Of a stretch of 33,343 bases of DNA, positions 10,720-33,234 are shown piece after piece; positions within the stretch are counted from its first letter, which is position 1, and each line of letters opens with the position of its first letter. The DNA is from an uncultured Christensenellaceae bacterium (lineage in GTDB: Bacteria > Bacillota > Clostridia > Christensenellales > UBA3700): positions 1 to 33,343 of the forward strand of contig CALWBV010000016.1 of the NCBI GenBank assembly GCA_944376205.1, in the 5' to 3' direction. Made by a program: the position numbers and the translations under genes. The notes beneath the pieces are model-generated. The model saw only the letters and a program-made list of their open reading frames with translations, was not told the origin of the DNA and made no database searches.

Positions 10720-11784
10720 ATGAGTGACTTTGAGATCAAAAGTGTATTAGTAAAATATAAAGGTAAAGGTGGAAAAGTTATTATTCCCTCCAGCGTAACA
10801 GACATAGGTCACGAGGCTTTTAGTGATTGCAAATCGTTGAAGAGTATAGAAATCCCCTCCAGCGTAACAAGTATAGGAGAGAGTGCTTTTTGTAGGTGCA
10901 AATCATTAGAGAGTATATCAATCCCTTCTAGCGTAACAAGTATAGGAGAGAGTGCTTTTTGGGGGTGTGAATCGTTACAGAGCATATCAATCCCTTCTAG
11001 CGTAACAAGTATAGGAGATCATGCTTTTTGGGGGTGTAAATCATTAGAGAGTATAGAAATCCCTTCTGGTGTGACAAGCATAGGAAAGGAGGCTTTTTTG
11101 GGTTGTGAATCATTAACGAGCGTAGAAATCCCTTCTGGTGTGACAAGTATAGGAAATGGGGCTTTTCATGAGTGTAAATCATTAGAGAGTATAGAAATAC
11201 CGCCTAGTGTGACAAGTATAGGAGAGTATGTTTTTTGGGGGTGTAAATCGTTAACGAGCGTAGAAATCCCTTCTGGTGTAACAAGCATAGGATGGGGGGC
11301 TTTTAATAGATGTTATTCATTACAGAGTATAGAAATCCCTTCTAGTGTTACAAGTATAGGAGAGAGTGCTTTTTGGGGGTGTAAATCACTAGAGAGCATA
11401 GAAATCCCTTCTGGTGTGACAAGCATAGGAGAGCGGGCTTTTAGTTGGTGTACTTCACTCAAGAGTATAGCAATCCCTTCAAGCGTAACAAGTATAGGAG
11501 AGAGAGCTTTTAGTTGGTGTACTTCACTCAAGAGTATAGCAATCCCTTCTAGTGTGACAAGTATAGGAGAGAGTGCTTTTATCTATTGCAAATCATTAGA
11601 AAGTATAGTAATCCCTACTAGTGTGGAAAGGATAGAATGGAGGGCTTTTGAAGGGTGTAAATCACTAAACAAAATCACGCTTCCTACAAAATTCAAGGGA
11701 CAAGAAGACAAGCTTGGCATTCGCAAAGAATGCAAAATTACATACACAGACGACGATGACGAAATAATCTATTCCAAAAACTGA
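10720..11784 (+). CDS. BspA-type leucine-rich-repeat protein 1
   Basis: 354 residues from the ATG at 10720, which has AAAGGAG 9 bases upstream; the in-frame TTG at 10711 touches that site and is rejected. A short N-terminal unit (FEIKSVLVKYKGKGGKV) leads into 13 repeats of 23 residues. They follow the pattern I-P-S-x-V-T-S-I-G-x-x-A-F-x-x-C-x-S-L-x-S-I, the LRR_5/BspA class. A cap (LPTKFKGQEDKLGIRKECKI) then gives the acidic tail TDDDDEIIYSKN. There is no signal peptide, membrane span or sorting motif, unlike classic surface BspA proteins. Repeats 10 and 11 are nearly identical at DNA level. It is the first of three paralogues in one operon. The role is unknown; the fold suits protein binding. 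Confidence 0.88.
   Translation: MSDFEIKSVLVKYKGKGGKVIIPSSVTDIGHEAFSDCKSLKSIEIPSSVTSIGESAFCRCKSLESISIPSSVTSIGESAFWGCESLQSISIPSSVTSIGDHAFWGCKSLESIEIPSGVTSIGKEAFLGCESLTSVEIPSGVTSIGNGAFHECKSLESIEIPPSVTSIGEYVFWGCKSLTSVEIPSGVTSIGWGAFNRCYSLQSIEIPSSVTSIGESAFWGCKSLESIEIPSGVTSIGERAFSWCTSLKSIAIPSSVTSIGERAFSWCTSLKSIAIPSSVTSIGESAFIYCKSLESIVIPTSVERIEWRAFEGCKSLNKITLPTKFKGQEDKLGIRKECKITYTDDDDEIIYSKN
11431..11568 (+). repeat. recent tandem duplication of one 69-base LRR unit
   Basis: Units 11431-11499 and 11500-11568 match at 64 of 69 positions, with a run of 44 identical bases. Neighbouring units of the same gene are less alike. The reading frame is kept, adding one 23-residue repeat. Confidence 0.85.
11541..11784 (+). 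repeat. 3' block shared with LRR gene 2 (12524-12767)
   Basis: A 244-base block matches 12524-12767 at an offset of 983 bases with about nine mismatches by eye. It covers the last repeats, the cap and the YSKN tail. This points to recent duplication or gene conversion between paralogues. Confidence 0.8.
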
Positions 11785-11810
11785 TTGATAAATACAAAGG
11801 AGAAACGAAA

Positions 11811-12767
11811 ATGGCATTTTTTCATAAAAAGAAAAAATCAAAGGGTCTAAAGATTAAACGTGGCACACTGGTAGAATATAAAGGAAAAGACGTTAATGTT
11901 TTTATCCCAGACAGTGTGACAAGTATCGGAGGGTGGGCTTTTTGCAAATGTAAATCGTTAGAGAGTGTAAAAATACCATCTAGTGTTGAAAGTATAGGGA
12001 AGTTCGCTTTTTACCGGTGTTATTCACTAAAGATTATAGAAATACAACCTGGTGTGGAAAGTATAGGAGAGCTGGCTTTTAGTGATTGTAAATCATTAGA
12101 GAGTATATCAATCCCTTCTAGCGTGACAAGTATAGGAGAGTGTGTTTTTTGGGGTTGTGAATCGTTGAAGAGTATAGAAATACAACCTGGCGTGGAAAGT
12201 ATCGGAGCGTGGGCTTTTTATGAGTGTAAATCATTAGAGAGTATATCAATCCCTTCAAGTGTGACAAGCATAGGAAAGGAGGCTTTTCGGGGGTGTGAAT
12301 CATTAACGAGCGTAGAAATCCCTTCTGGTGTGACAAGTATAGGAAATGGGGCTTTTCTTGAGTGTAAATCATTAGAGAGTATATCAATCCCTTCTAGCGT
12401 GACAAGTATAGGAGAGTGTGTTTTTTGGGGGTGTGAATCATTAACGAGCGTAGAAATCCCTTCTGGTGTAACAAGCATAGGAAGGGGGGCTTTTAATAGA
12501 TGTTATTCATTACAGAGTATATCAATCCCTTCTAGTGTTACAAGTATAGGAGAGAGTGCTTTTATCTATTGCAAATCATTAGAAAGTATAGTAATCCCTA
12601 CTAGTGTGGAAAGGATAGAATGGAGGGCTTTTGAAGGGTGTAAATCACTAAACAAAATCACGCTTCCTACAAGATTCAAAGGACAAGAAGACTGGCTCGG
12701 TATTCGCAAAGAGTGCAAAATTACATACACAGACGACGATGACGATATAATCTATTCCAAAAACTGA
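11811..12767 (+). CDS. BspA-type leucine-rich-repeat protein 2
   Basis: 318 residues. AAGGAG precedes the ATG, 26 bases after LRR gene 1. The N-terminus is basic (MAFFHKKKKSKGLKIKRG) and not a signal peptide. The YKGKDVNVFIP start unit leads into 11 repeats of 23 residues, some with the variant core IQPGVESIG. The cap and the tail TDDDDDIIYSKN follow, as in protein 1. The last repeats are almost identical to those of gene 1 at DNA level, showing recent exchange. The conserved cysteine in each repeat (AFxxCxSL) would form an internal ladder, as is usual for this class. Function unknown; probably cytoplasmic unless the tail directs it elsewhere. Confidence 0.87.
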   Translation: MAFFHKKKKSKGLKIKRGTLVEYKGKDVNVFIPDSVTSIGGWAFCKCKSLESVKIPSSVESIGKFAFYRCYSLKIIEIQPGVESIGELAFSDCKSLESISIPSSVTSIGECVFWGCESLKSIEIQPGVESIGAWAFYECKSLESISIPSSVTSIGKEAFRGCESLTSVEIPSGVTSIGNGAFLECKSLESISIPSSVTSIGECVFWGCESLTSVEIPSGVTSIGRGAFNRCYSLQSISIPSSVTSIGESAFIYCKSLESIVIPTSVERIEWRAFEGCKSLNKITLPTRFKGQEDWLGIRKECKITYTDDDDDIIYSKN

Positions 12768-12800
12768 TAACTAATAAACAAATACAAAGGAGAAAAAATT

Positions 12801-14069
12801 ATGGCATTGTTTAATAGATTGTTTCATAGAAATAAAAATACAAGGGGACTAAAGATTAAACGTGGCACACTGGTAAAATATAAAGGTAAAGGTGGAAAAG
12901 TTATTATTCCCGACAGCGTAACAGCCATAGGATGCGAGGCTTTTTTTCTCAGATCATTACAGAGTATAGTAATCCCTTCCAGTGTGACAAGCATCGGAAA
13001 GGAGGCTTTTTGGGGTTGCAAATCGTTGAAGAGTATAGAAATACAACCTGGTGTGAGAAGTATAGGAGAGAGCGCTTTTGCTTGGTGTGAATCGTTGAAG
13101 AGTATAGAAATACAACCTGGTGTGGAAAGTATCGGAGCGTGGGCTTTTTATGAGTGTAATTCATTAAAGAGTATATCAATCCCTTCTAGCGTGACAAAAA
13201 TCGGAAAAGGTATTTTGGCATCCTGTAATAATCTGAATCATATAGAAGTCGCAAAAGACAATCTCTATTATTATTCAGAGAATAACTGTATCATAGAAAA
13301 GCAAAGTAAAACATTGATAGCGGGCTGTAATGCAAGTATTATACCCGAAGACGTAAAAGACATCGGGGAGTGTGCTTTTTGGGAATGTACCTTAATGCAG
13401 ATTATAGAAATCCCGTCTGGTGTGAGGAGCATTGGAGAAGATGCTTTTTATAAGTGTAATTCATTAAAGAGTATAGAAATACCATCGAGTGTGCAAAGCT
13501 GTGGCAGAAATGTTTTCGAAGGTTGTGAATCACTAAAAAGAGCTACTCTTCCGACATGGTTTGAGGGGACAAATGCTGCAAAAAAGCTTGAAGAATATGG
13601 TTGTAGAATTACTTACAAAGATATTGAGATAACTCATGCTAAAAATAAGTCTTCTGTAAATACGCCTCCTACAAATCCACAAGAAAAAATAAATACGAAC
13701 GACTTCGAAATAAAAAGTATATTAGTAAAGTATAAAGGAGAAGGAGATAAGGTTAGCATTCCTAATGGTGTAAAAAACATAGGAGACGAGGCTTTCAGCG
13801 GTTGTAAATCGTTGAAAAGTGTAGAAATTCCGTCTAGCGTGACAAGTATCGGTGTGTGTGCTTTTGGTGGTTGCGAAACATTAAATAATATATCAATACC
13901 CTCTAGCGTGGTAAATATTAGATACGGAGCTTTTAGAGATTGCGTATCACTAGACAAAATCACGCTTCCTTCAAGATTCAAAGGACAAGAAGACAGACTC
14001 GGCATTCGCAAAGAGTGCGAGATTACATATTTAGACGACGATGACGATATAATCTATTCCAAAAACTGA
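12801..14069 (+). CDS. BspA-type LRR protein 3, apparent fusion of two units
   Basis: 422 residues, AAAGGAG upstream, 33 bases after gene 2. The first unit (1 to about 285) starts MALFNRLFHRNKNTRGLKIK. It holds LRR_5 repeats with one long insert typical of BspA proteins (DNLYYYSENNCIIEKQSKTL), then an LPTWFEG cap and YGCRITYKDIEITHAKN. A proline-rich linker (NTPPTNPQEKINTN) leads to a second start unit (DFEIKSILVKYKGEGDKV), three repeats, the cap and the terminal tail LDDDDDIIYSKN. The internal EITHAKN lines up with the terminal DIIYSKN of the relatives, so this looks like two former genes joined, with the inner tail decaying. It has no signal peptide. A terminator follows, closing the operon. 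Confidence 0.86.
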   Translation: MALFNRLFHRNKNTRGLKIKRGTLVKYKGKGGKVIIPDSVTAIGCEAFFLRSLQSIVIPSSVTSIGKEAFWGCKSLKSIEIQPGVRSIGESAFAWCESLKSIEIQPGVESIGAWAFYECNSLKSISIPSSVTKIGKGILASCNNLNHIEVAKDNLYYYSENNCIIEKQSKTLIAGCNASIIPEDVKDIGECAFWECTLMQIIEIPSGVRSIGEDAFYKCNSLKSIEIPSSVQSCGRNVFEGCESLKRATLPTWFEGTNAAKKLEEYGCRITYKDIEITHAKNKSSVNTPPTNPQEKINTNDFEIKSILVKYKGEGDKVSIPNGVKNIGDEAFSGCKSLKSVEIPSSVTSIGVCAFGGCETLNNISIPSSVVNIRYGAFRDCVSLDKITLPSRFKGQEDRLGIRKECEITYLDDDDDIIYSKN

Positions 14070-14101
14070 TAATAAATAAAAGCTTTTTTGCAACATAAGT
14101 T

Positions 14102-14138
14102 AAAGTCTCTCGATTTTCGGGAGGCTTTATTTTTTTTT
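14102..14138 (+). terminator. terminator of the LRR operon
   Basis: 11-bp stem including two G-U pairs (14102-14112 with 14118-14128), ATTTT loop and a long T run. Confidence 0.87.
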
Positions 14139-14257
14139 GGGCAAAATCCATAGAATAGTCAGAAATTAAAATAAGCGTTAATGCCCGTAGAAAAAGGCGG
14201 CAGGAGATATTGAATACTTACAAAATACATGGTATAATGACACAAGAGGGAAAAGCT

Positions 14258-15658
14258 ATGAAAATTATTATTGTGTGCAGTTTGATTGCAGTAATGCTTT
14301 GCGTATATTTATTGACGCTTACGGGGTGTTCCGATTCTACGCCCGACGCAATCAAGGATAATTTTACTAATCTTGCAAAGGGCGGCAGTTTTGACAAGAC
14401 GTCAGGCGGACAGGGCGATAGCGTTGTTTTTGACTTTGGCAAAGACGTAACGCTCAACACTCTTGTACTCAAGGAAAAAAGCGGCAGCGTGACTTCTTTT
14501 AGACTTTATGCCGACGATTCGGTTGAGGCTTTTTACGGCAACGATTTTATAGACGGTTACAGATATTGTGCATTCGACGAAATCACGCTTTCGTCTGTGC
14601 GTATAGAAGTATTGCAATGTGACGGCGAATGGGAAATCGACGATTTGGAAGCATATGACGTCAAGTCTACCGATAAGGACGACAACTTCAGAATCATGTC
14701 ATATTTGACCGTGGACAGTGCACTGTATCTCGGTGAGGAATACGCTCAAAAATTTTCGGCAGTGACGCAGTTCAACGTATTCGGCACTCTATATCTCGAC
14801 AAGGAGGGAAATATCGTTTTTCAGGACTATGAAAAAGACGGAGAGACAATAGACGGGAAACAAGCGTTGAATTACGCTTTGCAACTTGTGCGTAAATACA
14901 ATCCCGAGGCGAAGATTGTCGCTACCATTCTCGGCAATAAAGACTTTTATCAGGACGGAATGGATGCCGAACAGCGTCATACAGCGGCAATGGGAGATAA
15001 TAAAGACAAGCTGATTTCCAACGTTCTTAAAGTAATCGAGGAATTTTCGTTCGACGGAATTTCTTTCGACTACGAGTATCCTTACAAATTAAAGTCGTAC
15101 AGCGTTTATAAGTCATTCCTCAAGGATCTCGACGAAGCTTTGCCCGAGGGCAAATTGTTGACGGCGGCAATTTCCGATTGGCAACTTGGCATAAAGATGT
15201 TTACTAAAAACGATTTGAAGGTACTTGATCAGATAGAGGTCATGGCTTATGACTCGTTTGACGAAAGAGGTAATCATTCGACATTCTACAAGTCATGTTA
15301 CGATATTCTTGAGAAATTCCGTTCTAAAGGAGTGGATATGTCCAAGATAAATCTCGGAATACCTTTCTATTCCCGTCCCGTCGACGGAGCAACTTTCTGG
15401 GGCAACTATAAGGATGTGGCAGATAAAATTTTACCTTGGGAAAATTCTTATACCCAGCCTTATACCGACCTTGACGGCAAGGAATATCCGCCTCTTTCCA
15501 ATTACTACAACGGTATTCAGATTGTAAAAGATAAGACGTGTTATGCCGTCGATAGCGGCGTGGGAGGAGTTATGATTTGGCATTTTGCCTGCGATTCGTC
15601 AGATCCCGAACTTTCGCTTATTCAGACAATGGCAAAAGCCGTGCAATCCAGAAAATAA
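14258..15658 (+). CDS. lipoprotein with discoidin-like and GH18 domains
   Basis: 466 residues from the ATG at 14258 (GAGGG upstream), chosen because the lipoprotein signal begins there; lipobox LTGC gives Cys24. Residues about 35-135 form an F5/8 type C (discoidin)-like sugar-binding domain (VVFDFGKDVTLNTLVLKE, SFRLYADD, SSVRIEVLQ). Residues about 143-465 match the GH18 barrel: the signature FDGISFDYEYP holds the catalytic Glu273 and the assisting Asp271, with Ser269 where the first Asp of DxDxE usually lies. MAYDSFDE and IPFYSRPV are also GH18-like. It probably sits on the cell surface and cleaves or binds beta-1,4-linked N-acetylhexosamine chains such as chitin, host glycans or peptidoglycan. 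Chitinase versus endo-glucosaminidase cannot be decided. Confidence 0.85.
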   Translation: MKIIIVCSLIAVMLCVYLLTLTGCSDSTPDAIKDNFTNLAKGGSFDKTSGGQGDSVVFDFGKDVTLNTLVLKEKSGSVTSFRLYADDSVEAFYGNDFIDGYRYCAFDEITLSSVRIEVLQCDGEWEIDDLEAYDVKSTDKDDNFRIMSYLTVDSALYLGEEYAQKFSAVTQFNVFGTLYLDKEGNIVFQDYEKDGETIDGKQALNYALQLVRKYNPEAKIVATILGNKDFYQDGMDAEQRHTAAMGDNKDKLISNVLKVIEEFSFDGISFDYEYPYKLKSYSVYKSFLKDLDEALPEGKLLTAAISDWQLGIKMFTKNDLKVLDQIEVMAYDSFDERGNHSTFYKSCYDILEKFRSKGVDMSKINLGIPFYSRPVDGATFWGNYKDVADKILPWENSYTQPYTDLDGKEYPPLSNYYNGIQIVKDKTCYAVDSGVGGVMIWHFACDSSDPELSLIQTMAKAVQSRK

Positions 15659-15671
15659 TAGATTTTATCAT

Positions 15672-15704
15672 AAAAGCACTTTGCGGTTTGCAAAGTGCTT
15701 TTTT
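15672..15704. terminator. bidirectional terminator between convergent genes
   Basis: 13-bp perfect stem (15672-15684 with 15690-15702), GGTTT loop, with A and T runs on both sides. It serves the GH18 lipoprotein gene (+) and the MATE gene (-). Confidence 0.92.
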
Positions 15705-15759
15705 ATATGGACTTTTATATACGACGTAAAAGGTGAGTTGCTTTAATTGATGATAGCGC

Positions 15760-17247
15760 TTAAAGAACGTTGTTTTTGTTTTCGCTTTCCGATGTCGTTT
15801 CGCATATGCTTGAGTTTTCTTTCTGTTCAGGATTATCTTGCGCAACATCAATAGAGGAGTTAGGATTATAAGAGGATTCAGTTTTTACCTTGTCGGAGTT
15901 ACAACGGTTTTTAAGTATCTTGGGGAAGAATATGAGAAATACCGTGGTAGATAATACAGCTGCGCCTATATCGGCTATCGGTTCGGCATAGAATACCGCT
16001 TGCGCTCCCCATAGTCTGGGCAAAAGCAGAGTAGCGCCAAGATACAATACGAGTTTTCTGGTCAGCGAAAGAACTATCGCAAACTGCGGCTGTCCCATTG
16101 CCGTCATGCCGTCTACAAACGCATACTGGAAGGCGAGAGGAATTATGCCGATCATAAATATTCTTATGCCCCATACGCTGTATTGAGATATCCGTTCGTT
16201 GTCGGTGAAAAGAGATACGAAGGGTTTTGCCACTACAAAAGACAGCGCAAACATTATGCTCGCAAAAGCAATACACATGCCGAGTATGCATTTTTCGCCG
16301 CGCTTTATGAGGTCGGCATTGCGTGCTCCGTAGTTAAAACTTATGACAGGCTGGCTTCCCGTGCTTATGCCCAGCATAGGCATAGTGATGATAGATAAAA
16401 ACGCCTGCACGACGGTAAGCGAACTTATCCACATGTCAGCGTCGTCGCCGCCGTAAGCTTTAAGACATATGTTGCTGGCGATGATTATAATACTGTCTGT
16501 CGCAACGATTATAAAAGGCGAAATGCCCATCTTGAATATTCGAAGGATTGTTTTGACGTCGTATCCGCCAAAGGAAAGTCTGCATTTTGTGCCTTTGAGA
16601 AACAAGAATACGATCACAAAGACAAAAGACAAAAATTGCGAAATGATAGTTGCCAGCGCTGCGCCGCCTACGCCCATGTTAAACGTAAAAATAAAAAGCG
16701 GATCGAGCGCTATATTTGCCACTGCGCCTATGAGCGTAGTCGCCATGCCGATACCCGAATAGCCCTGCGCAATAATAAATTGATTGAGACCCGTGGATAC
16801 CACGCTGAAAAGCGTTCCTGCAGTGTAGATCAACAGATATTGTCTTGCATAAGAATATGTCGCCGTACTTGCGCCGAACGTCATGAGCAAGGGCTTTGCA
16901 AGCGCAAAAGTGAGCGTCATCGTCACTACGGCAAGACCTAAAAGCATAACGAGTGCGTTGGCAAGAATTTTTTTTGCTTTGGGCATATCGTCTTCGCCGA
17001 GAGCCATTGCAAACAGCGGTGCGCCGCCCAGTCCCACAAGGTTTCCGAAAGACGTCAGAAGCGTTGCCACAGGTGCGCAAACTCCGAGTGCCGTAAGCGC
17101 TATGTCGCCCGTGCCCTCTATGTTGCCCACATACATTCTGTCCACGATAGAATATAATACGCTCACAAACTGCGCCAACATTGCGGGCAGGGTAAGTTTC
17201 AGTACTGTGGAAAAGACTTTTTTATTTGCCAGATCGAGAGCTTTCAT
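15760..17247 (-). CDS. MATE family multidrug/cation exporter
   Basis: 495 residues from the ATG at 17247. A TTG 27 bases upstream is in frame, but it lies inside the -10 box of a good promoter, so it cannot be the start. The protein has about 12 hydrophobic spans in two halves, as in MATE/NorM exporters. The N-terminus (KKVFSTVLKLTLPAMLAQFV, then YSIVDRMYVGNI) is a classic MATE start. Other family-like parts are GNLVGLGGAPLFAMALGE, GLNQFIIAQGYSGIGM and the mid-point GISTGSQPVISFNYGARN. It should export organic cations or drugs from the cytoplasm in exchange for Na+ or H+. The last 45 residues are polar and Asn/Glu-rich. The substrate is unknown. Confidence 0.9.
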   Translation of the reverse strand: MKALDLANKKVFSTVLKLTLPAMLAQFVSVLYSIVDRMYVGNIEGTGDIALTALGVCAPVATLLTSFGNLVGLGGAPLFAMALGEDDMPKAKKILANALVMLLGLAVVTMTLTFALAKPLLMTFGASTATYSYARQYLLIYTAGTLFSVVSTGLNQFIIAQGYSGIGMATTLIGAVANIALDPLFIFTFNMGVGGAALATIISQFLSFVFVIVFLFLKGTKCRLSFGGYDVKTILRIFKMGISPFIIVATDSIIIIASNICLKAYGGDDADMWISSLTVVQAFLSIITMPMLGISTGSQPVISFNYGARNADLIKRGEKCILGMCIAFASIMFALSFVVAKPFVSLFTDNERISQYSVWGIRIFMIGIIPLAFQYAFVDGMTAMGQPQFAIVLSLTRKLVLYLGATLLLPRLWGAQAVFYAEPIADIGAAVLSTTVFLIFFPKILKNRCNSDKVKTESSYNPNSSIDVAQDNPEQKENSSICETTSESENKNNVL

Positions 17248-17273
17248 TTTTTGCGTTTCCCTTTTCGCCCACA

Positions 17274-17302
17274 ATGATACTGCCGCAAAAATGCAATGTC
17301 AA
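17274..17302 (-). promoter_or_regulatory. promoter of the MATE gene
   Basis: Minus strand: TTGACA at 17302-17297, 17-base spacer, TATCAT at 17279-17274. It fixes the MATE start downstream at 17247. Confidence 0.75.
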
Positions 17303-17416
17303 ACGTTTAAGTGCAAATTGCTTTCAAATATGGATTAAATAATTGTTTTATGTAATAAAATCAAATTTTCTATGCGTTTTTTTGCGGGTAATTAGCATTA
17401 TCTGTTAAAAAACTAT

Positions 17417-17446
17417 AAAAAAATACGGCGTGAACCGTATTTTTTT
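17417..17446 (-). terminator. terminator after the flavodoxin gene
   Basis: 12-bp stem (17417-17428 with 17435-17446), six-base loop, A/T runs on both strands. It separates flavodoxin from the MATE gene. Confidence 0.87.
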
Positions 17447-17516
17447 GTTGATTGTCACATTAAGGGGGGAAATGACGACAATTTTTGACAATGAATTAAT
17501 TTGAAAACCTCACGTT

Positions 17517-18032: not shown

Positions 18033-18059
18033 ATAAGCCTCCTTTTTCTTCCGTCACCC

Positions 18060-18068
18060 ATTATAGCA
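18060..18068 (-). promoter_or_regulatory. extended -10 promoter of the flavodoxin gene
   Basis: Minus strand TGCTATAAT (18068-18060) is an extended -10. No good -35 is seen, which is common for this class. Confidence 0.55.
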
Positions 18069-18488: not shown

Positions 18489-18833
18489 GGGGCTGTACCG
18501 GATTCGATGGGGAAGGGAGCAGGGTATAAGCACGCCGAAGGCTCGTCTTCGTAAAAACGGAAAATTAAAATTAAACGCAAATAATAACAAACAAATGGCT
18601 TTCGCTGCCTAACAGCAGGCCTGTCGACCCAAGACTCCACGGCTTGGAAATCGGCATCAGTTAGTGGACTAGGATCGGGTGCATACGCCTTTAACGCCCG
18701 ACGCCTCTCAAAGGCTTGCCAAACTACCCTCCGTGAATAGAGAGTATAAGGGACAATCATATGTTCAATAAGCGTGTAGAAAGTGCCTTTCAAACTTTTT
18801 CAGACAGGGGTTCAACTCCCCTCAGCTCCACCA
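18489..18833 (+). ncRNA. ssrA: transfer-messenger RNA (tmRNA)
   Basis: Rescues stalled ribosomes with SmpB by acting as alanyl-tRNA and then as an mRNA. The 5' end GGGGCTG pairs over 7 bases with CAGCTCC (823-829 of the 18 kb block), followed by the encoded ACCA ending at 18833. The T arm has a 5-bp stem around TTCAACT (18806-18822). The 5' segment GTACCGGATTCGATGGGGAAG is the conserved tmRNA start. The tag frame at 18577-18612 reads ANNNKQMAFAA then TAA, beginning with the resume codon GCA. The 345-base length is usual. The 3' end is a known target for integrases, and island genes begin directly after it. Confidence 0.96.
18823..18833 (+). other. probable attL at the ssrA 3' end
   Basis: The acceptor-stem end TCAGCTCCACCA (18822-18833) recurs as TCAGCTCCATCA at 32041-32052 in direct orientation, 11 of 12 bases the same. 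Tyrosine integrases commonly use the 3' end of tRNA or tmRNA genes, and one is encoded at 22346-23260. Confidence 0.5.
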
Positions 18834-20207: not shown

Positions 20208-22151
20208 TTAAACTATTTTGGTAAAAATAGCCCTATACTCCATTCCAAGCAAAAGGTCTATATCGTCTAGTGTCGGAGTTATCGTTGGAGACCAGAAATA
20301 GTCAGTTGTATCGTAAACAACATATTCCCATCTTTCAAACCGATAACCTTCATCGGGAACCGCAGTAACCGACGTAGGGGTTGCTCCTTCATCTACGATT
20401 TGTGAAGTTTCTCCTTGTATCGTTCCACCTTCTCCTGCTGTAAAAGTTAAATTATAGACTCTGACAAATTCAGCTGTTATTGTTATATCCTCGTGAATAT
20501 TTGTGTCCTGCCTTTGAGGATCGGTTGAACCGTCGCTCCATTTAACAAATCTATATCCATTATTAGCTTTAGCGGTAATAATCGGGGCAGAATAATTATT
20601 ATCGATTGTAATGGCAAACTCGAAGAAGTGCTTTCCTTCCGGTTTATAATCGTTTGGATTTTTATCTCCACTATTTTCAGAAAAATCGTATTGCAGCAAT
20701 CCTCCCACATAGCCTAAATTTGTTTTATATGTTGCGGTATATGCTATTTTGGTAAAAATAGCCCTATACTCCATTCCAAGCAAAAGGTCTATATCGTCTA
20801 GTGTCGGAGTTATCGTTGGAGACCAGAAATAGTCAGTTGTATCGTAAACAACATATTCCCATCTTTCAAACCGATAACCTTCATCGGGAACCGCAGTAAC
20901 CGACGTAGGGGTTGCTCCTTCATCTACGATTTGTGAAGTTTCTCCTTGTATCGTTCCACCTTCTCCTGCTGTAAAAGTTAAATTATAGACTCTGACAAAT
21001 TCAGCTGTTATTGTTATATCCTCATGAATATTTGTGTCCTGCCTTTGAGGATCGGTTGAACCGTCGCTCCATTTAACAAACTTATATCCGTTATCAGGCT
21101 CTGCAGTTATAATCGGGGCACAGTAATCATCTTGGGCAGAGACTTCAAACGAGAAAAATCTGTTAGAAATTCCTTCATGGACAATTTTTCCTCCATAGGA
21201 ATTCACTTCATAGCAAATATCATAGGTTATTAAATCCATTTTGGGAGTAAGTTCTATTTGTTCGGAATAATGCCAAGGCTCTAAACATACGCCTTGCTCG
21301 TCTGTAATTTGTTCATCGCCATAATACCACCCCTTAAAAATATATCCGTCTTTGGTTACAGGTAAAATATTTACTTTCTCGCCATATTTTACAGTGTGCT
21401 CTTGTACACTGCCGTCATTATTAGTTCTATACCGGCAATCAATTCCTTCCCATTTAGCAACAAAAGTTACGGAGTTGACTGCGGTATAAGGAAACGATAT
21501 TTCTTGTTTTTCTAAAAACCATCCAAGAAATTTATAATTCTTTTTTTCAACCGTCGGAGCAGAATCAATTTGTGTATTTTTTTCTATCTCATTTCTTGAA
21601 ACAATATTTCCGTCACTGATAAAAGATACTGTTACTTTATCGGCAGACGATTCGGGCTTGTTATCATTATTACCGCCTTCCGGATCTGTGGGATCTTCGG
21701 GGTTGTTATTACCATCACCGTTTCCTTCTGTATTTTCAGATTGGCCATCGTAATTATTCAGCATTTTCAATACATCTAAACTATATGTATCATTTTTACC
21801 GGAACACTCATAATATGGAAACAATTTTGAATAACTGAATGTTTTTTCTTCTAAATTTATGTCTTTGACTATAACGAAAAATTTGGAACGAATGTAAGCT
21901 CCAAAACTATTAGTCGCTTCTACATCGACATATACCACATACATTCCTTGACCGTTATCCTCAATATATGATGTTTCATTCCATATGGCAGAACTCGGAG
22001 ACTTCAAAGTATTGGATATGATTTGTTGTGCTGCAGCTTCAGCAAAATCTTGATACTGTTTTTCCGTGTTGATATTTGAGCAAGCAGTAATGCAAAGCAA
22101 ACTAATTCCAATAAGCACTAAAAATAGAGATAGTATAATTTTTTTTCTCAT
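20208..22151 (-). CDS. InlB B-repeat surface lipoprotein
   Basis: 647 residues. The lipoprotein signal (MRKKIILSLFLVLIGISLLC) has lipobox ITAC with Cys24. Residues about 28-135 are a small unnamed domain (YQDFAEAAAQQIISNTLKSP). A linker rich in N, D, G and P (about 138-172) projects the rest from the membrane. The outer part begins with InlB/Listeria-Bacteroides-type repeats (KNYKFLGWFLEKQE, KDGYIFKGWYYGDEQ). Two divergent B-repeat units follow, each with GYKFVKWSDGSTDP or GYRFVKWSDGSTDP and FTAGEGGTIQGETSQ. The two units are nearly identical at DNA level. Likely an adhesin-like or host-facing protein carried as island cargo. The ribosome binding site is AGAGGCG. Ligand unknown. Confidence 0.82.
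   Translation of the reverse strand: MRKKIILSLFLVLIGISLLCITACSNINTEKQYQDFAEAAAQQIISNTLKSPSSAIWNETSYIEDNGQGMYVVYVDVEATNSFGAYIRSKFFVIVKDINLEEKTFSYSKLFPYYECSGKNDTYSLDVLKMLNNYDGQSENTEGNGDGNNNPEDPTDPEGGNNDNKPESSADKVTVSFISDGNIVSRNEIEKNTQIDSAPTVEKKNYKFLGWFLEKQEISFPYTAVNSVTFVAKWEGIDCRYRTNNDGSVQEHTVKYGEKVNILPVTKDGYIFKGWYYGDEQITDEQGVCLEPWHYSEQIELTPKMDLITYDICYEVNSYGGKIVHEGISNRFFSFEVSAQDDYCAPIITAEPDNGYKFVKWSDGSTDPQRQDTNIHEDITITAEFVRVYNLTFTAGEGGTIQGETSQIVDEGATPTSVTAVPDEGYRFERWEYVVYDTTDYFWSPTITPTLDDIDLLLGMEYRAIFTKIAYTATYKTNLGYVGGLLQYDFSENSGDKNPNDYKPEGKHFFEFAITIDNNYSAPIITAKANNGYRFVKWSDGSTDPQRQDTNIHEDITITAEFVRVYNLTFTAGEGGTIQGETSQIVDEGATPTSVTAVPDEGYRFERWEYVVYDTTDYFWSPTITPTLDDIDLLLGMEYRAIFTKIV
20213..20549 (-). 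repeat. 337-base direct repeat, copy nearer the 3' end
   Basis: Matches 20744-21080 with one mismatch by eye (20493 against 21024). The offset is 531 bases, or 177 codons, so the frame is kept. Confidence 0.93.
20744..21080 (-). repeat. 337-base direct repeat, inner copy
   Basis: Partner of 20213-20549. The sequence between the copies is much less similar to its counterpart, so the identity is confined to one block. Confidence 0.93.
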
Positions 22152-25719: not shown

Positions 25720-25803
25720 CTTTATATGTCAATACTTTTTAGGTACAAAACCACAACAAACACCAACTTTTCCCATACAAACCTGTAAAAAGGTATTATG
25801 CTG

Positions 25804-25967
25804 TACCTTTCGGCTTGGCATTTTGGGAGAGCTAGCTGCAAAGTCAAAGGCACGCAATAATTTTTCTATATTTTGATGAGAGATAATTAATAAATTTTTG
25901 CGTGTCCCTTGGGGCAGACCTTTGACTTTTTGTTTTTGCTCTCCCGTGTTTTTGTTGCCGAAAGGTA
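25804..25967. repeat. mosaic inverted repeat upstream of the serine recombinase
   Basis: Four blocks recur in mirror order: TACCTTTCGGC (25804-25814 / 25957-25967), GGGAGAGC (25825-25832 / 25938-25945), AAAGTCAAAGG (25840-25850 / 25919-25929) and CACGCA (25851-25856 / 25899-25904). The spacers between the blocks do not match. The centre is AT-rich. No gene is present; candidate recombinase-binding or attachment region, or a structured RNA. Confidence 0.7.
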
Positions 25968-26120
25968 AACAACATAATAAGGTATTGATAGCGTATGTGT
26001 CCGTTGGGTTTCACTTCGGATAAGGTTGTGCCTTAATCCTATCTCTAACGTGTTCCGTGCCTGTTAACCCTTGCCGTTAAGGGATATACTGTAAGTAAAA
26101 AATTTTAGGAGGTATAAAAT

Positions 26121-27629: not shown

Positions 27630-27664
27630 ATCGAACTACTGAGTTTGGTTGAGGTTTTTATTAT
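27621..27664 (+). terminator. terminator of the serine recombinase gene
   Basis: 17-position stem with one mismatch and several G-U pairs (27621-27637 with 27642-27658), ACTG loop and a T-rich tail. The stem begins inside the last codons. Confidence 0.75.
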
Positions 27665-27754
27665 TTATCTGATAAACATTTCTATCGTATAGTCAAGTTT
27701 GAGTTTGTTTTTTCTAAATGGTACTTTTATAGATAAGTTTTTGTATTTTGTCGC

Positions 27755-27784
27755 AAAAGAAAAGCCCCGATTAATTCGGGACTT
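27755..27784 (-). terminator. terminator after the 235-residue gene
   Basis: Minus strand AAGTCCCGA/TCGGGGCTT stem (one G-U pair only on this strand) followed by TTTTC. It fits the minus-strand gene ending at 27816. Confidence 0.65.
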
Positions 27785-27815
27785 GTTTTAAGGAGGAGTG
27801 TTTTTCATTAAAATT

Positions 27816-28523
27816 TTATATAGTGATTTTATCTATTAATTCCTGTAGGCTTAATATCTTAGGGGAGTTGTCCTGCATATTCATTATTTGCACAAGAGAA
27901 TAATCTCTTAATTGCGAGTAGGTAATGTCAGTTAAGGCTTTTATATCACAATCGTTTTCGATATTGCAATTCAAAGAGTTGCAAAAGGCCGTAATTTTGG
28001 TAAGTTTTATTTCGTTGGATTCAGGAAGTAATTTTAGCGAAAACATTACAGGCGAAAAATTCGCATATACTGCTTGTCGATAGTTTTGTCCGTAAGCAAT
28101 GACGATATTGCCGTTGTATTCTGCGGGCAAGGACTGAATAGTATAACCTGCATCGCAGTCCATAAGTATGATTTTTCTTCTTGCCGTTTGTACGCAATCG
28201 TATAGAGCTTTTTCTCTGGCATGGAGTTTTATATTGTCGCACAAATCGTTTGCTATGAGCATATCGCAGATCAAATCGAGAGCTTGGTTGTATTCTATGT
28301 CCGTATTAATGCCTATGCTAAAGCCGCTAGCAAAATTTATACTTTTCAAGTATTGTATGCCGTTATGGATTTTGTGTAATTGAGCTAAGGAAAACTTGTC
28401 AAAATTAAGTTCGTCTATGAGTTTTTCTATTTCTTGGTTTGAGTGTATTTTATCTACATACACTGGGGTGTGTTTCATAAAAGGTTTATATAAGATAGAG
28501 TATTGTTGTAAATCGTAAAACAT
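27816..28523 (-). CDS. 235-residue protein of unknown function
   Basis: No family is recognised. It is a soluble, mixed alpha/beta-looking protein without signal peptide, membrane span or clear metal motif. Notable parts are IIYLMDCDAGY-like strand IILMDCDAGYTIQSLP (about 118-133), NIVIAYGQNYRQAVYANFSP and a C-terminal ISLQELI-type helix. AAAGGAG precedes the ATG. It is transcribed away from the four-gene operon that starts at 28658, with 134 bases between, an arrangement often seen when divergent genes share one regulator. Its position makes it a possible member of the same cargo system, but nothing in the sequence proves a link. Confidence 0.7.
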   Translation of the reverse strand: MFYDLQQYSILYKPFMKHTPVYVDKIHSNQEIEKLIDELNFDKFSLAQLHKIHNGIQYLKSINFASGFSIGINTDIEYNQALDLICDMLIANDLCDNIKLHAREKALYDCVQTARRKIILMDCDAGYTIQSLPAEYNGNIVIAYGQNYRQAVYANFSPVMFSLKLLPESNEIKLTKITAFCNSLNCNIENDCDIKALTDITYSQLRDYSLVQIMNMQDNSPKILSLQELIDKITI

Positions 28524-28657
28524 AAATTTTCTCCTTTAATAATGATTATTTTTTCTAATAATATCGCCTCATAGATTATGATACATCAGTCAATGTACCG
28601 ATTTTAGTATATTAAAAATATTATCATCATACAAAACGATTATATTGGAGGCAAATT

Positions 28658-29236
28658 ATGCACTTAATCGAATTGATAGAAACACGAAAAATAATTTCGA
28701 TTTTCATACAAATAATCGGATCAAACAATAACAAAAACAGCATTGTCGATATAGGTGCAGTCGTTATCGAGGGTTGGGGAAAACTAAAAGACGGTATAAA
28801 AACAGGGGTAATTCTGACTAATAAATATTCAGCTGGAGTGCATTGCCTGGATTTGTCGGTTAATGATGAGATAAGCAATGCGGCAGTAAATGATAATCAA
28901 CTTAGCGATTCTCAAGATATAAAAATTGTTTTGCAAAAATTAAAAGAATTTGTCGGGGAGGATATTTTGCTAGGGTATAATATTGAGCAGACTTGCGGTT
29001 TTTTGAATTCTTTGGGTAAGCCGTTCGGTATATTATTCAACAATAAACTTTTAGATACGCTTGCAATTGCAAAATCGATATATAAAGACAAGATAAATAG
29101 TTATAGCTTACTTGATCTCACAGAGAGGCACGGAATATCGGGTAAAACATTCTGTGCATTGGATAACGCTTGCATTACAGCTCATTTATTGGGAGAACTT
29201 GCGCTGCGTGACGATGAGGCTCATTGTAATTATTAG
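28658..29236 (+). CDS. DnaQ-like exonuclease-fold protein 1, apparently catalytically dead
   Basis: 192 residues. It follows the pattern of the DEDDh (DnaQ/epsilon) exonuclease domain: IVDIGAVVIEG (usually EIGAVxI), LGYNIEQTCGFLN (usually VGHNxxFDxxFL), LLDTLAIAKSIY, YSLLDLTERHGI and FCALDNACITAHLLGEL (usually HRALxDAxATAxLL). By my alignment the catalytic residues are changed: Asp to Phe16, Glu to Gln18, Asp to Thr112, His to Phe165 and Asp to Asn170. The fold may be kept for binding nucleic acid or protein rather than cutting. TTGGAGG precedes the ATG. It is the first gene of a four-gene operon. The fold assignment is by motif pattern only. Confidence 0.65.
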   Translation: MHLIELIETRKIISIFIQIIGSNNNKNSIVDIGAVVIEGWGKLKDGIKTGVILTNKYSAGVHCLDLSVNDEISNAAVNDNQLSDSQDIKIVLQKLKEFVGEDILLGYNIEQTCGFLNSLGKPFGILFNNKLLDTLAIAKSIYKDKINSYSLLDLTERHGISGKTFCALDNACITAHLLGELALRDDEAHCNY

Positions 29237-29260
29237 ATTAAATAAATTAAGGAGAAATAT

Positions 29261-29998
29261 ATGGAAGATTTTAAGAATAAAAGTTATGTAATAATGGGCT
29301 TTGCCACAATAGACGGTTTTTATGACAAAATAAAAAGAAAAGTAGTCCGTCTCGCTAAAGAAGAGATAATTGAAGTGTCGGCAGTAAAAATAGAAAAAGG
29401 AAAAATAAAGGAATATTTTAATTCTTTTGTTTCAATAGACGGATATGATGCTCACGATATTGAGTTTGACGATTTTCGCATAAATTCGTATTATGCAGAT
29501 GCCGTACATCTAATCGGAGCACCGAATTTTGAATATATAGCAAAAAGGCTGTTTGATTTTATTGGACAAAGTATCATTGTAAATACATCATTCATAACTA
29601 AAGAAGCTTTCAAAATTTTCAAAGAAAAAGCGCAAAGTTTAGGTTATGTGTTCAACAACAATACATTAGATATAGATGATATTTATACTGCAAAAATATT
29701 AAAAGATATGATTGAAGAAAGTGGTGAAAAGTTTGAAAGTTTAACAATTTTACAGCTTGCACAAAAGATGAAAACCGATAAAAATATGTGGGCAGAGATT
29801 TTTGCCGACAATGATATATTTTTTGATCCCGATAGCGAAGTGAATGAGTTGAAAGGCAGGAACGATCCTTTGAGCTGGGCACTTGCTTTTGCAAGGTTGT
29901 TTATTAAGATCAACGATTGCGAAGAAGAGGCAATGGATATTGACGAATCAATGTTTGAAGAAATAAAAGATGTTGATAATAATATGAATATGTTATAA
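29261..29998 (+). CDS. DnaQ-like exonuclease-fold protein 2, apparently catalytically dead
   Basis: 245 residues, 24 bases after its likely paralogue, with AAGGAG. The pattern again fits a DnaQ-type domain: SYVIMGFATIDG (usually YVVxDxETTG), EEIIEVSAVKIEKGKI, LIGAPNFEYIAKRLFDFIG, then IIVNTSFITKEAFKIF, LDIDDIYTAKIL and DPLSWALAFARLFIKI. By eye the active-site positions read Gly13, Ala15, Thr113, Asn201 and Trp206 in place of D, E, D, H and D. An acidic tail (about 218-245) ends the protein. Two adjacent proteins losing the same residues argues for a structural or sensing job. I cannot exclude that the second half is unrelated to the fold. Confidence 0.6.
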   Translation: MEDFKNKSYVIMGFATIDGFYDKIKRKVVRLAKEEIIEVSAVKIEKGKIKEYFNSFVSIDGYDAHDIEFDDFRINSYYADAVHLIGAPNFEYIAKRLFDFIGQSIIVNTSFITKEAFKIFKEKAQSLGYVFNNNTLDIDDIYTAKILKDMIEESGEKFESLTILQLAQKMKTDKNMWAEIFADNDIFFDPDSEVNELKGRNDPLSWALAFARLFIKINDCEEEAMDIDESMFEEIKDVDNNMNML

Positions 29999-30071
29999 TT
30001 TTATAACCTTTAGGTGGACAAATATTTATATACCTGATAGAATATAGAAAAGCAATTCTAAGGAGAAAAAT

Positions 30072-30860
30072 ATGAACAATAGAATTTTTGAAATAGTAAA
30101 TGATGATGAGCTAAAACAACAATATCAACAATTAATAAAAGCAGTTAACGACTTCAATAAAAACAAAACGAAAAGGCTAACAATTTGTCCAACGATGGCA
30201 GGCTCGGAGAATGCAGAAATTATGATAGTAGGAAGAGCTATCAACGGATGGTGTCCTATAAAGCGAGTTTGTGACGATAATGACGATAATACCGAATCAG
30301 TGCAGAAACAAATTCTTGAAATGGTGAATAGATGCGGTAAATGCAACTTGGATTGGGTTGTCGGCAAAAATTATTATAACAAATGCCAAGAGAATAATTG
30401 TCCGTATGCTATTAAGCAAAAGAATGAAGACAAGAGAGAAAAAAAATCGGCTTTTTGGAGATTTGCCAAACTTATTGTAAAGAAATATTTTGAAAACAAA
30501 AAGAAAGAATTCATAGAAGGCGAATGGCAAAAAGAAATTATTTGGACAAATTTGTATAAGGCATCTTATGAAGACGGGGGCAATCCGAAAGGGTTTTACA
30601 ATGCTCAAAAAAACATGTGCGATGACATGCTAAAAAGGGAGATTAAACTTTATCAGCCCGAAGCTATATTTTTTATTACAGAAACAAATCATAGAACAAA
30701 TAACAAAGAAATTGATTTTAGTTGGTTTGTTGAACAAGATTTTCCAAATACATACGAATTGTTAAGGGACAATAATTGCAAATGCAAGGTTTATGTTACA
30801 AAAAGACCTGAATGTAGAAAGATAGAAGAAGTGTATAATGAGAAAAAAAGCCTCAACTAA
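30072..30860 (+). CDS. uracil-DNA-glycosylase-like fold protein (tentative)
   Basis: 262 residues, AAGGAG upstream, 73 bases after the previous gene. The N-terminal part AEIMIVGRAINGW (48-60) resembles the first motif region of the UDG superfamily. IIWTNLYKASYEDGGNP (156-172), with a following helix and YQPEAIFFITE (194-204), fits the later strands of that fold. Between them is a Cys-rich stretch, RCGKCNLDW to NKCQENNCPY (Cys88, 91, 105 and 110), that could bind zinc or an iron-sulfur cluster. The usual catalytic motifs are not plainly present, so a DNA repair activity cannot be claimed. In this operon it may recognise modified or foreign DNA, which is speculation. Confidence 0.5.
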   Translation: MNNRIFEIVNDDELKQQYQQLIKAVNDFNKNKTKRLTICPTMAGSENAEIMIVGRAINGWCPIKRVCDDNDDNTESVQKQILEMVNRCGKCNLDWVVGKNYYNKCQENNCPYAIKQKNEDKREKKSAFWRFAKLIVKKYFENKKKEFIEGEWQKEIIWTNLYKASYEDGGNPKGFYNAQKNMCDDMLKREIKLYQPEAIFFITETNHRTNNKEIDFSWFVEQDFPNTYELLRDNNCKCKVYVTKRPECRKIEEVYNEKKSLN

Positions 30861-30903
30861 TAAGATATTGATAGCCGATAGTAAAAATAATACGGAGTAA
30901 ACT

Positions 30904-31878
30904 ATGCTAGAGCCTAAAAAACTTGCACTTATCAGAATTTTGCAAATACTTCAAGAAAAGAGCGACCCAAACCATGCTTTTACGCAAGAAGACATAGCTA
31001 CTTATCTCAATAAGGATTACGGTATAGAGATAGAGAGAAAGGCTATTGCCCGTAATTTGTCATTACTAAAAGAAGCGGGGTATGACATAGAAAGTACTCG
31101 CAACGGCTCATATCTTGCAAGCAGAGATTTCGAAGATTGCGAATTAAGGCTGTTGATAGACGGCGTTTTGTCAAGCAGATATATCAATGCAAAACACTCA
31201 AAAGACTTAATAGAAAAGTTATGCAAACTTTCAAACGAGCAATTCAAAAGTAACGTAAAAAACATATACAGTGTAAATGAGTGGAGTAAAAGCAAAAGCG
31301 TTGATTTATTCTATAATATAGATGTTATAGATGAAGCAATCGAAAAGAATAGGCAAATTACTTTTGATTACAACAAATACGGTATTGATAAAAAACTGTA
31401 CAAATCGGCATCGCATACAGTAAGTCCATATCAGCTTATTCTGCACAATCAGAGATATTTTTTGATGGCACTCAATGAAAAGCGGGGAGATATTGTATAT
31501 TACAGAATGGACAGAATCACGAATATTTGTCTATCGGATACTCCGCTAACTTCCTTAAAGTCTATAAAAGGCTATGAGGCGGGGATAGATTACAGGCGAT
31601 TTTCATCGTCTTTGCCTTATATGTTTTCAGACGAAGTGCAGAAGATTTCATTCAAAGCACCCGAATGGATGTCTGACCAGATAGTAGATTGGTTCGGGTT
31701 CGATTTTAAAGTCGAAAGAGCTAATGACGGAGAATGTATATTCAATATCAATGCCAGTCCCAAAGCAATGGAATATTGGGCAATGCAATATCTCAATTAT
31801 GTTGAAGTATTACAACCAACTGAACTTAGAGAAAAGATAAAAAGCAATATACAGTCGGCTTTGAACAAGTATAACTAA
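30904..31878 (+). CDS. WYL-domain transcriptional regulator
   Basis: 324 residues. A winged-helix HTH opens the protein (about 1-75: FTQEDIATYLNKDYGIEIER, KAIARNLSLLKEAGYDIEST). The WYL domain follows (about 138-225) with the recognisable SPYQLILHNQRYFLMAL and VYYRMDRITNI. The C-terminal WCX-like extension (about 245-320) has KISFKAPEWMSDQIVDWF. Family members bind a nucleic-acid-derived or nucleotide ligand through the WYL domain and often control phage-defence or DNA-damage genes (established for BrxR/CapW-type regulators). GGAG precedes the ATG, and it is the last gene of the operon, 43 bases after the UDG-like gene. It probably regulates this operon and perhaps the divergent 235-residue gene. 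Confidence 0.87.
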   Translation: MLEPKKLALIRILQILQEKSDPNHAFTQEDIATYLNKDYGIEIERKAIARNLSLLKEAGYDIESTRNGSYLASRDFEDCELRLLIDGVLSSRYINAKHSKDLIEKLCKLSNEQFKSNVKNIYSVNEWSKSKSVDLFYNIDVIDEAIEKNRQITFDYNKYGIDKKLYKSASHTVSPYQLILHNQRYFLMALNEKRGDIVYYRMDRITNICLSDTPLTSLKSIKGYEAGIDYRRFSSSLPYMFSDEVQKISFKAPEWMSDQIVDWFGFDFKVERANDGECIFNINASPKAMEYWAMQYLNYVEVLQPTELREKIKSNIQSALNKYN

Positions 31879-32040
31879 ATTTGGAGCAAATCAAATCTAA
31901 TCAAAAGATGACAAGTCATATGGAAATTTATTAAAAAGATTTTATGTACCTGATTATTGAACATAATTTGTGAATATAAAAAATGATAATTAGCGAGCAT
32001 TATTAAGATATATGGATAAGGGAATTCGATTTTCTATTAT

Positions 32041-32052
32041 TCAGCTCCATCA
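32041..32052 (+). other. probable attR (imperfect copy of the ssrA 3' end)
   Basis: TCAGCTCCATCA repeats the ssrA terminal TCAGCTCCACCA in the same orientation with one difference. A terminator-like hairpin begins three bases later, exactly what would stand after an intact ssrA gene before integration. Confidence 0.5.
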
Positions 32053-32054
32053 AT

Positions 32055-32087
32055 CTCGCTGCCCGACAAGGGGGCGAGTGTTTTTTT
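32055..32087 (+). terminator. terminator, possibly the original ssrA terminator
   Basis: CTCGC pairs with GCGAG (32055-32059 with 32074-32078), with an inner CCC/GGG stem, then TG and a run of seven T. It is 177 bases after the WYL gene but only three after the candidate attR. Confidence 0.65.
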
Positions 32088-32220
32088 GTTCAAAATACTC
32101 GGCTTATAATATCGGGAATAATTTCAATTTAATAAATTTATATGTTGTCTAAAGAGATAAAAAACAGATTTCAAAGTTTTGGTTTAGAGAGACATAATTC
32201 TTATATTTTGCGGGGAGTGA

Positions 32221-32249
32221 TTGAAAAAGCCTAAAAGTTGTGATATAAT
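32221..32249 (+). promoter_or_regulatory. promoter of the Sel1-repeat gene
   Basis: TTGAAA at 32221-32226, 17-base spacer, TATAAT at 32244-32249 with an extended TGA. It implies a leader of about 150 bases, which includes possible stems GTCGGT/ACCGAC and GCCGC/GCGGC; the latter is just before the ribosome binding site. No known riboswitch is recognised. Confidence 0.72.
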
Positions 32250-32406
32250 CAACTATTATGTGGAGCAAAAATAGGGAGTCGGTTGAGGGGACTTCGGCTG
32301 GCAATATTTTTTGTGACCGACAATAAAGACAAGACGGTTTTAAAGAAACAGTCTGTAAAAATTAAACAGATGAAAAAGCCGCTTTACTGCGGCACGGGAG
32401 AATAAA

Positions 32407-33234
32407 ATGGCAGAAGATCTATATGATAAAGCAGTGAAATATTATAATAACAAAGAGTATGAAAAAGCTTTCGAATTGTTTTTGCAGTCTGCCGAACATG
32501 GGTATGCGGATGCGCAAAATAATTTAGGATACATGTACGAATCTGGACAAGGCGTGGCTCAAGATTATGTGAAAGCTGCGGAGTGGTACAGAAAGTCTGC
32601 CGAGCAAGGGGATTCCACAGCGCAATGTAATTTAGGATATTTGTACCATTATGGTAAAGGTGTAGAGCAAGATTATGCAAAAGCGGTCAAGTGGTATAAA
32701 AAGTCTGCTGCGCAGGGTCATGTTATAGCACAATGCAATTTAGGGTATATGTATGCACACGGCAAAGGAGTGGCTCAAGATTATGCCAAAGCAGTCAAGT
32801 GGTACAAGAAGTCTGCCGAGCGAGGTGATGCTAATGCGCAATGCAATTTAGGATATATGTATGATAGTGGCAAAGGCATAAAGCAAGATTATGCAAAAGC
32901 GACAGAGTGGTATAGAAAGTCCGCTGTGCAGGGGCATGTCATAGCACAATGCAATTTAGGAAATATGTACGAAAACGGTCAAGGAGTGAAGCAAGATTAT
33001 ACCAAGGCGGTAGGATGGTACAGAAAGTCCGCCGAGCAGGGGGATGAGGATGCGCAAAAGAATTTGCTGCGCATGTACGCTGACGGCAATATGGAGACTC
33101 AAGATTACGAAACTTTGAGTCAGTGGTACAAAGAATTTACCGAGACAAAGGACAAAGCGGAAAAGACAGATAAAGAAAAAGATATATCGGACAAAGCAAA
33201 CGATGACGAAGAAATCGTTTATTCAAAGAATTGA
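32407..33234 (+). CDS. Sel1-repeat (TPR-like) protein with YSKN tail
   Basis: 275 residues. After a first helix pair (YDKAVKYYNNKEYEKAFELF) come about six Sel1 repeats of 36 residues. They follow A-Q-x-N-L-G-Y-M-Y-x-x-G-x-G-V-x-Q-D-Y-x-K-A-x-x-W-Y-x-K-S-A-x-x-G, a solenoid used for protein binding. A charged linker (TKDKAEKTDKEKDISDKAND) leads to the tail DDEEIVYSKN, the same ending as the LRR proteins at 10720-14069. There is no signal peptide, so it is probably cytoplasmic unless the tail is a targeting signal. GGGAG precedes the ATG. A second copy begins 57 bases after its stop. Function unknown. Confidence 0.88.
   Translation: MAEDLYDKAVKYYNNKEYEKAFELFLQSAEHGYADAQNNLGYMYESGQGVAQDYVKAAEWYRKSAEQGDSTAQCNLGYLYHYGKGVEQDYAKAVKWYKKSAAQGHVIAQCNLGYMYAHGKGVAQDYAKAVKWYKKSAERGDANAQCNLGYMYDSGKGIKQDYAKATEWYRKSAVQGHVIAQCNLGNMYENGQGVKQDYTKAVGWYRKSAEQGDEDAQKNLLRMYADGNMETQDYETLSQWYKEFTETKDKAEKTDKEKDISDKANDDEEIVYSKN

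What the first reader, a model, noticed from the sequence alone, without database searches (positions are those of the whole stretch)
11752..33231. Same C-terminal YSKN tail on unrelated repeat proteins
The three LRR proteins end in DDDD[ED]IIYSKN (YSKN codons at 11770-11781, 12753-12764 and 14055-14066), and the Sel1-repeat protein ends in DDEEIVYSKN (33220-33231). The folds are unrelated and none has a signal peptide. The last four codons are TAT TCC AAA AAC in the LRR genes but TAT TCA AAG AAT in the Sel1 gene, so three of four differ at silent sites. That argues for selection on the peptide rather than copied DNA. A shared short tail at the extreme C-terminus suggests a sorting, secretion, cargo-loading or partner-recognition signal. 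I know of no described signal of this form, but I could not search.
Basis: partly seen in the sequence, partly recalled or inferred. Interest (0 to 1): 0.85.

Follow-up and report, generated by a model that had tools for sequence, protein, structure and literature searches.

The report
Shared YSKN tail on repeat proteins
Three leucine-rich-repeat proteins and one unrelated Sel1-repeat protein in one bacterial genome end in nearly the same ten amino acids, which is likely a private docking tag that would let different binding proteins reach one as yet unknown partner.

Summary
LRR1-3 (10720-14069) and the Sel1 protein (32407-33234) end in D-D-[DE]-[DE]-I-[IV]-Y-S-K-N, the only Y-S-K-N-stop endings in the 1.79-Mb assembly. 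A background model expects about 9e-5 unrelated pairs this alike per genome. Third codon positions differ at 8 of 10, first/second at 1 of 20, so it is not recently copied DNA. It is not a widespread signal: 0 of 45 other family genomes, four scattered hits among 84,980 species, only one in a stop-ended frame of 30 or more residues, and one further tailed protein, the LRR relative P0005. Encapsulin, VirD4-type and WXG100 families were not detected. Against a pure C-terminal tag, the LRR tail continues the solenoid's end cap, which in genus relatives ends in C-K-A-[TEK]-[IV]-I-Y-Y, and tail-like copies lie inside LRR3 and P0005. My reading: the LRR tail grew from the cap's last strand and, with the Sel1 tail, likely serves as a strain-specific docking tag (0.4). 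Close rival: a structural cap, with the Sel1 match captured or coincidental.

The parts
10720..11784 (+). LRR1, 354 aa, BspA-type LRR protein without signal peptide; tail DDDDEIIYSKN at 11749-11781
11811..12767 (+). LRR2, 318 aa; tail DDDDDIIYSKN at 12732-12764
   Evidence: structure model
12801..14069 (+). LRR3, 422 aa, looks like a fusion of two capped LRR units; tail DDDDDIIYSKN at 14034-14066
13605..13646 (+). internal cap end with a tail-like copy, R-I-T-Y-K-D-I-E-I-T-H-A-K-N, inside LRR3
   Evidence: compare P0005, which starts M-E-I-T-Y-S-K-N
32407..33234 (+). Sel1-repeat protein, 275 aa; charged linker then tail DDEEIVYSKN at 33202-33231
   Evidence: structure model
33267..33343 (+). 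exact 77-nt copy of the start of the Sel1 gene and its leader at the contig end; points to a further, unassembled tandem Sel1 copy
   Evidence: family D3
10485..14257 (+). stretch holding the LRR array between the Na:alanine symporter and the GH18 gene; no LRR genes at this place in G032, G040 and G033

Best explanation
The shared ending D-D-[DE]-[DE]-I-[IV]-Y-S-K-N of three LRR proteins and one Sel1-repeat protein is likely a short, strain-specific C-terminal docking tag that would bind one common cytosolic partner while the repeat domains would bind different targets. Shown: the tail, its confinement to these genes in this assembly, its improbability as a coincidence within the genome under a simple background model, and the lack of recent DNA copying. 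Shown too: the LRR tail continues the end cap of the solenoid, which in genus relatives ends in C-K-A-[TEK]-[IV]-I-Y-Y. Predicted: the last residues are weakly ordered or disordered in single-sequence models. Inferred and untested: that in the LRR array the cap's last strand was lengthened by an acidic spacer and S-K-N to form the tag; that the Sel1 protein carries the same tag after a charged linker; and that one partner reads both.
For: Only four Y-S-K-N-stop endings in the genome, all repeat proteins of the two arrays. About 9e-5 such pairs expected per genome. Third positions differ at 8 of 10, first and second at 1 of 20; 2 of 8 synonymous codons are identical against 3.7 expected if independent. 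This excludes recent DNA copying but, because the pair was found by its peptide, does not by itself prove selection. The metagenomic LRR relative P0005 keeps D-D-D-I-I-Y-S-K-N exactly, with a longer acidic run. Single-sequence models give mean pLDDT 37 for the last block (271-275) of Sel1 and 52 for the last block (311-318) of LRR2. Both families stand in arrays: three LRR genes in a row, and a Sel1 gene followed by the start of an identical copy.
Against: No partner was identified, and nothing measures function. The tail was found only in this genome and P0005. Tail-like copies exist away from the C-terminus (LRR3 13605-13646, P0005 N-terminus), which fits a structural cap better than a terminal tag. 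Genus LRR relatives end in the same cap without S-K-N. The LRR2 model places a low-confidence strand on residues 313-317 and its best solved match, 4fs7, has an aligned range that reaches residue 317, so the LRR tail may simply be part of the fold. 33 closed Sel1-like ORFs of other genomes and one plasmid end in other ways (28, five more; both filters are loose and miss some). The two arrays differ in GC3 (0.30-0.31 against 0.41; sample mean 0.455, SD 0.055), so they may have separate histories; LRR codon bias may also cause this.
Confidence: 0.4

Rival explanations
1. The LRR tail is only the last strand of the solenoid's C-terminal cap, after an acidic turn, and the Sel1 tail is a captured or coincidental copy without a shared role.
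For: The cap is homologous to that of genus LRR proteins ending in C-K-A-[TEK]-[IV]-I-Y-Y; three other BspA-type ORFs also have a strand-turn-strand-like end by a loose pattern, one of them I-I-H-C-S-D-G-L-I-Y-K-T-K-N (L041); tail-like copies sit inside LRR3 and at the start of P0005; the LRR2 model has strands at 303-307 and 313-317 and aligns with 4fs7 over a range ending at 317.
Against: The Sel1 model is helical and its tail follows a charged linker with low model confidence, so a cap strand would not explain it. A chance match is expected about 9e-5 times per genome. Recent capture would leave silent sites alike, but 6 of 8 synonymous codons differ.
Confidence: 0.35
2. Chance convergence of two acidic C-termini, noticed because many windows were read.
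For: The last six residues alone would match about 0.5 times per genome; the LRR and Sel1 arrays may have separate histories.
Against: With the acidic stretch the expectation falls to about 9e-5 per genome; in the sample the best of 12,090 pairs scored 24 against 48 here, and 0 pairs shared the last four residues (0.3 expected).
Confidence: 0.1
3. The tail is a secretion or cargo-loading signal for a machine that reads C-termini.
For: A shared short tail after a flexible linker is how cargo-loading peptides look (recalled); there is no N-terminal signal-peptide core.
Against: No encapsulin (PF04454), VirD4-type coupling protein (PF02534) or WXG100 (PF06013) match in the own genome, which is 94.8% complete; the tail is on very few proteins and has no wider distribution. 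Other machines were not tested.
Confidence: 0.1
4. The acidic-I-[IV]-Y ending is a substrate for a tyrosine kinase, of the bacterium or of a host, in the manner of EPIYA-like motifs.
For: Acidic residues before a tyrosine with I or V at -1 resemble kinase substrate motifs (recalled, not tested).
Against: The two secretion families tested for a delivery route were not found; no motif test is available here; S-K-N at the extreme C-terminus is unexplained.
Confidence: 0.05

Closest known systems
BspA-type LRR_5 (PF13306) proteins with C-terminal caps, including genus relatives without signal peptide (L089, L090, L092, L095)
   Same: LRR solenoid and a homologous end cap with the invariant cysteine
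   Different: These relatives end in C-K-A-[TEK]-[IV]-I-Y-Y; the acidic run plus S-K-N was seen only in the window's genes and in P0005
Sel1-like repeat proteins of plasmids (for example on Psychrobacter pA17P1)
   Same: Sel1 solenoid, 55.5% identity over a match of residues 1-241
   Different: The 15 plasmid rows listed (of 1,273 records) end at residue 240 or 241, before most of the linker and the tail
C-terminal cargo-loading or encapsulation peptides (recalled)
   Same: Short shared peptide at the extreme C-terminus of otherwise unrelated proteins, after a linker in Sel1
   Different: No encapsulin shell found; acidic-I-x-Y-S-K-N does not match the loading peptides that I recall
Type VII YxxxD/E and type IV C-terminal signals (recalled)
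   Same: C-terminal, short
   Different: No residue at +4 after the tyrosine; PF06013 and PF02534 not found

Membership tests
BspA-type LRR (PF13306 LRR_5) | LRR_5 profile match above the curated cut-off | tested here: met
   398.5, 367.4 and 256.8 bits against 27.7
Sel1-repeat proteins (PF08238) | Sel1 profile match above the curated cut-off | tested here: met
   219.3 bits against 30.7
Encapsulin cargo with loading peptide | encapsulin shell gene in the genome | tested here: not met
   0 matches of PF04454 in the own genome (94.8% complete); control rang in 3 of 14 genomes
Type IV secretion substrates | VirD4-type coupling protein (PF02534) | tested here: not met
   0 matches in the own genome; control rang in 5 of 14; other coupling-protein families not tested
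Type VII (ESX) substrates | WXG100 partner and YxxxD/E | tested here: not met
   0 matches of PF06013 in the own genome, control rang in 2 of 14; the sequence has no residue at +4 after Y
LPXTG / PEP-CTERM / type IX sorting tails | hydrophobic segment or large C-terminal domain with export signal | tested here: not met
   tails are acidic and polar and there is no signal-peptide core
ssrA-like tag | identity with the tmRNA tag | tested here: not met
   tag of this genome is ANNNKQMAFAA
C-terminal docking motif (short linear motif) | a partner that binds the tail | not testable with these tools
   no partner known

The most novel reading that the evidence does not exclude
A bacterial counterpart of a constant region: two unrelated, array-forming repeat scaffolds (LRR and Sel1) whose binding heads diversify have converged on one C-terminal tag, so that any head they evolve is handed to the same cytosolic effector.
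Probability: 0.2. Interest if true: 0.8.

Novelty: new variant of a known kind. Interest (0 to 1): 0.45.

Why it matters
If the tag is real, it gives a handle to the unknown partner and so to the function of LRR and Sel1 arrays without export signal, whose roles are mostly unexplained (my own knowledge). It would also show that such tags can be private to a strain, and hence invisible to searches that rely on wide conservation.

Tried and rejected

A clean foreign origin of the LRR array was considered and not claimed: GC3 is low, but the cap is related to genus proteins and the flanking DNA shows no clear insertion borders.

Full report
What is there. Three head-to-tail LRR genes (10720-11784, 11811-12767, 12801-14069) and a Sel1-repeat gene (32407-33234) end in DDDDEIIYSKN, DDDDDIIYSKN, DDDDDIIYSKN and DDEEIVYSKN. 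Pfam gives LRR_5 and Sel1 far above cut-off. None has a hydrophobic N-terminal segment. The finding's coordinates and codons are correct.

Is it more than chance? In the own genome (1,788,128 bases, 94.8% complete) the pattern for Y-S-K-N-stop matches eight places; four truly read Y-S-K-N-stop, and they are these four genes. From 156 C-termini called by a simple ORF rule in 240 kb of the same genome, a position-anchored score model gives 5.9e-11 per pair and about 9e-5 pairs among an assumed 1,700 genes; among acidic tails about 8e-5. The last six residues alone would be matched about 0.5 times, so the acidic stretch matters. The three LRR tails are near-identical DNA and count once.

Is it copied DNA? 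Between LRR1 and Sel1, third positions differ at 8 of 10 codons, first and second positions at 1 of 20; of eight codons for the same residue 2 are identical, 3.7 expected if independent. So there was no recent copying. As the pair was found by its peptide, this does not separate selection on an old shared tail from convergence.

How wide is it? The pattern for [DE]-I-x-Y-S-K-N-stop (degenerate at S) occurs in 0 of 45 other genomes of the family. [DE][DE]-I-[LIVMF]-Y-S-K-N followed by TRR has four hits in the 84,980-species collection; only one lies at the end of a stop-ended frame of 30 or more residues, a 36-residue one. Viral contigs have none for a slightly stricter pattern. The LRR cap with tail matches 0 of 395 other genomes of the order. 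In 5.8 billion proteins, searches with the ends of Sel1 and LRR2 gave 3 proteins among 8 candidates and 2 among 5 at E 10 or better (only proteins of 0.55 to 1.75 times the query's length are candidates); a third with the LRR3 junction gave only the own protein among 40. Of the five proteins read, P0004 (the window's own LRR3, on nine contigs) and P0005, a 203-residue metagenomic LRR protein, carry the tail; the three Sel1 hits do not. 28 closed Sel1-like ORFs of relatives end otherwise (32 rows printed, 4 open at a locus edge). That filter missed the window's own Sel1 protein, so I repeated it with another pattern: 16 closed ends, the own one and 15 others, five of them new, none like the tail. 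Both filters are loose and miss some genes.

Where does the LRR tail come from? The LRR cap aligns with LRR proteins of four genus relatives (L089, L090, L092, L095) that end in R-[KR]-[AG]-C-K-A-[TEK]-[IV]-I-Y-Y-stop; three of these four were put in the alignment, at 40-47% identity. The window caps read R-K-E-C-[KE]-I-T-Y-x-D-D-D-D-[DE]-I-I-Y-S-K-N. Of 41 closed LRR ORFs with distinct ends, 3 end in YSKN (the window's own), and six, those three included, have a strand-turn-strand-like end by a loose pattern. One of them, L041, ends in L-I-Y-K-T-K-N, which looks alike but belongs to a different cap. So the I-I-Y part of the tail plausibly descends from the cap's last strand.

Internal copies. 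LRR3 looks like two capped LRR units in one frame: its first unit ends in R-I-T-Y-K-D-I-E-I-T-H-A-K-N at 13605-13646, then a linker, then a unit that starts like LRR1. P0005, as predicted, starts M-E-I-T-Y-S-K-N and continues into a like linker; its DNA was not seen. This weighs against a signal that must sit at the extreme C-terminus, at least in LRR proteins.

Genomic setting. In G032, G040 and G033 the symporter and the GH18 gene stand side by side without LRR genes; in the other three relatives opened (G038, G028, G036) the stretch fetched shows the GH18 relative without the symporter. No co-travelling partner gene lies with the LRR array. The Sel1 gene lies at the contig end beyond a tmRNA gene whose downstream side differs in the three relatives examined, though recombinase relatives occur in two of them; the contig stops in an exact 77-nt repeat of the Sel1 start. 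Of 15 other genus genomes in that search, 12 have no Sel1 match and three have one weak one. GC3 is 0.30-0.31 for the LRR genes and 0.41 for Sel1 against 0.455 (SD 0.055) for 156 genes. Both arrays look accessory, perhaps with separate histories.

Machines that might read it. No match for encapsulin, VirD4-type coupling protein or WXG100 in the own genome.

Reading. I favour a strain-specific C-terminal docking tag (0.4), arisen in the LRR proteins from the cap strand. Nearly as likely (0.35) is a structural cap with a captured or coincidental Sel1 match. Function and partner are inferred, not shown. In print: four searches, read as listings only, found no description of such a tail.

Noticed in passing
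window 18489-18833 and downstream to 33343: tmRNA gene followed by a region with a tyrosine integrase, a G2P-like Rep protein and a large serine recombinase; the content downstream of the tmRNA differs in three relatives (recombinase relatives in two of them), as at an integration hot spot.
   Followed up: partly
window 20213-20512 and 20744-21043: Exact 300-nt direct repeat inside the gene of an InlB-B-repeat protein (20208-22151).
   Followed up: no
window 28658-31878: Two exonuclease-like genes (DEDDh; the second only weakly), an unassigned gene and a WYL regulator in one direction, possibly a small defence-like cluster; PADLOC lists the WYL and DEDDh models only as CRISPR-associated.
   Followed up: partly
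L089, L090, L092, L095: An LRR protein without evident signal peptide (open frames of 268-302 codons) in four genus genomes, ending in C-K-A-[TEK]-[IV]-I-Y-Y.
   Followed up: partly
L041: A different LRR protein of a genus relative ends in H-C-S-D-G-L-I-Y-K-T-K-N, alike in look to the tail but on another cap type.
   Followed up: no
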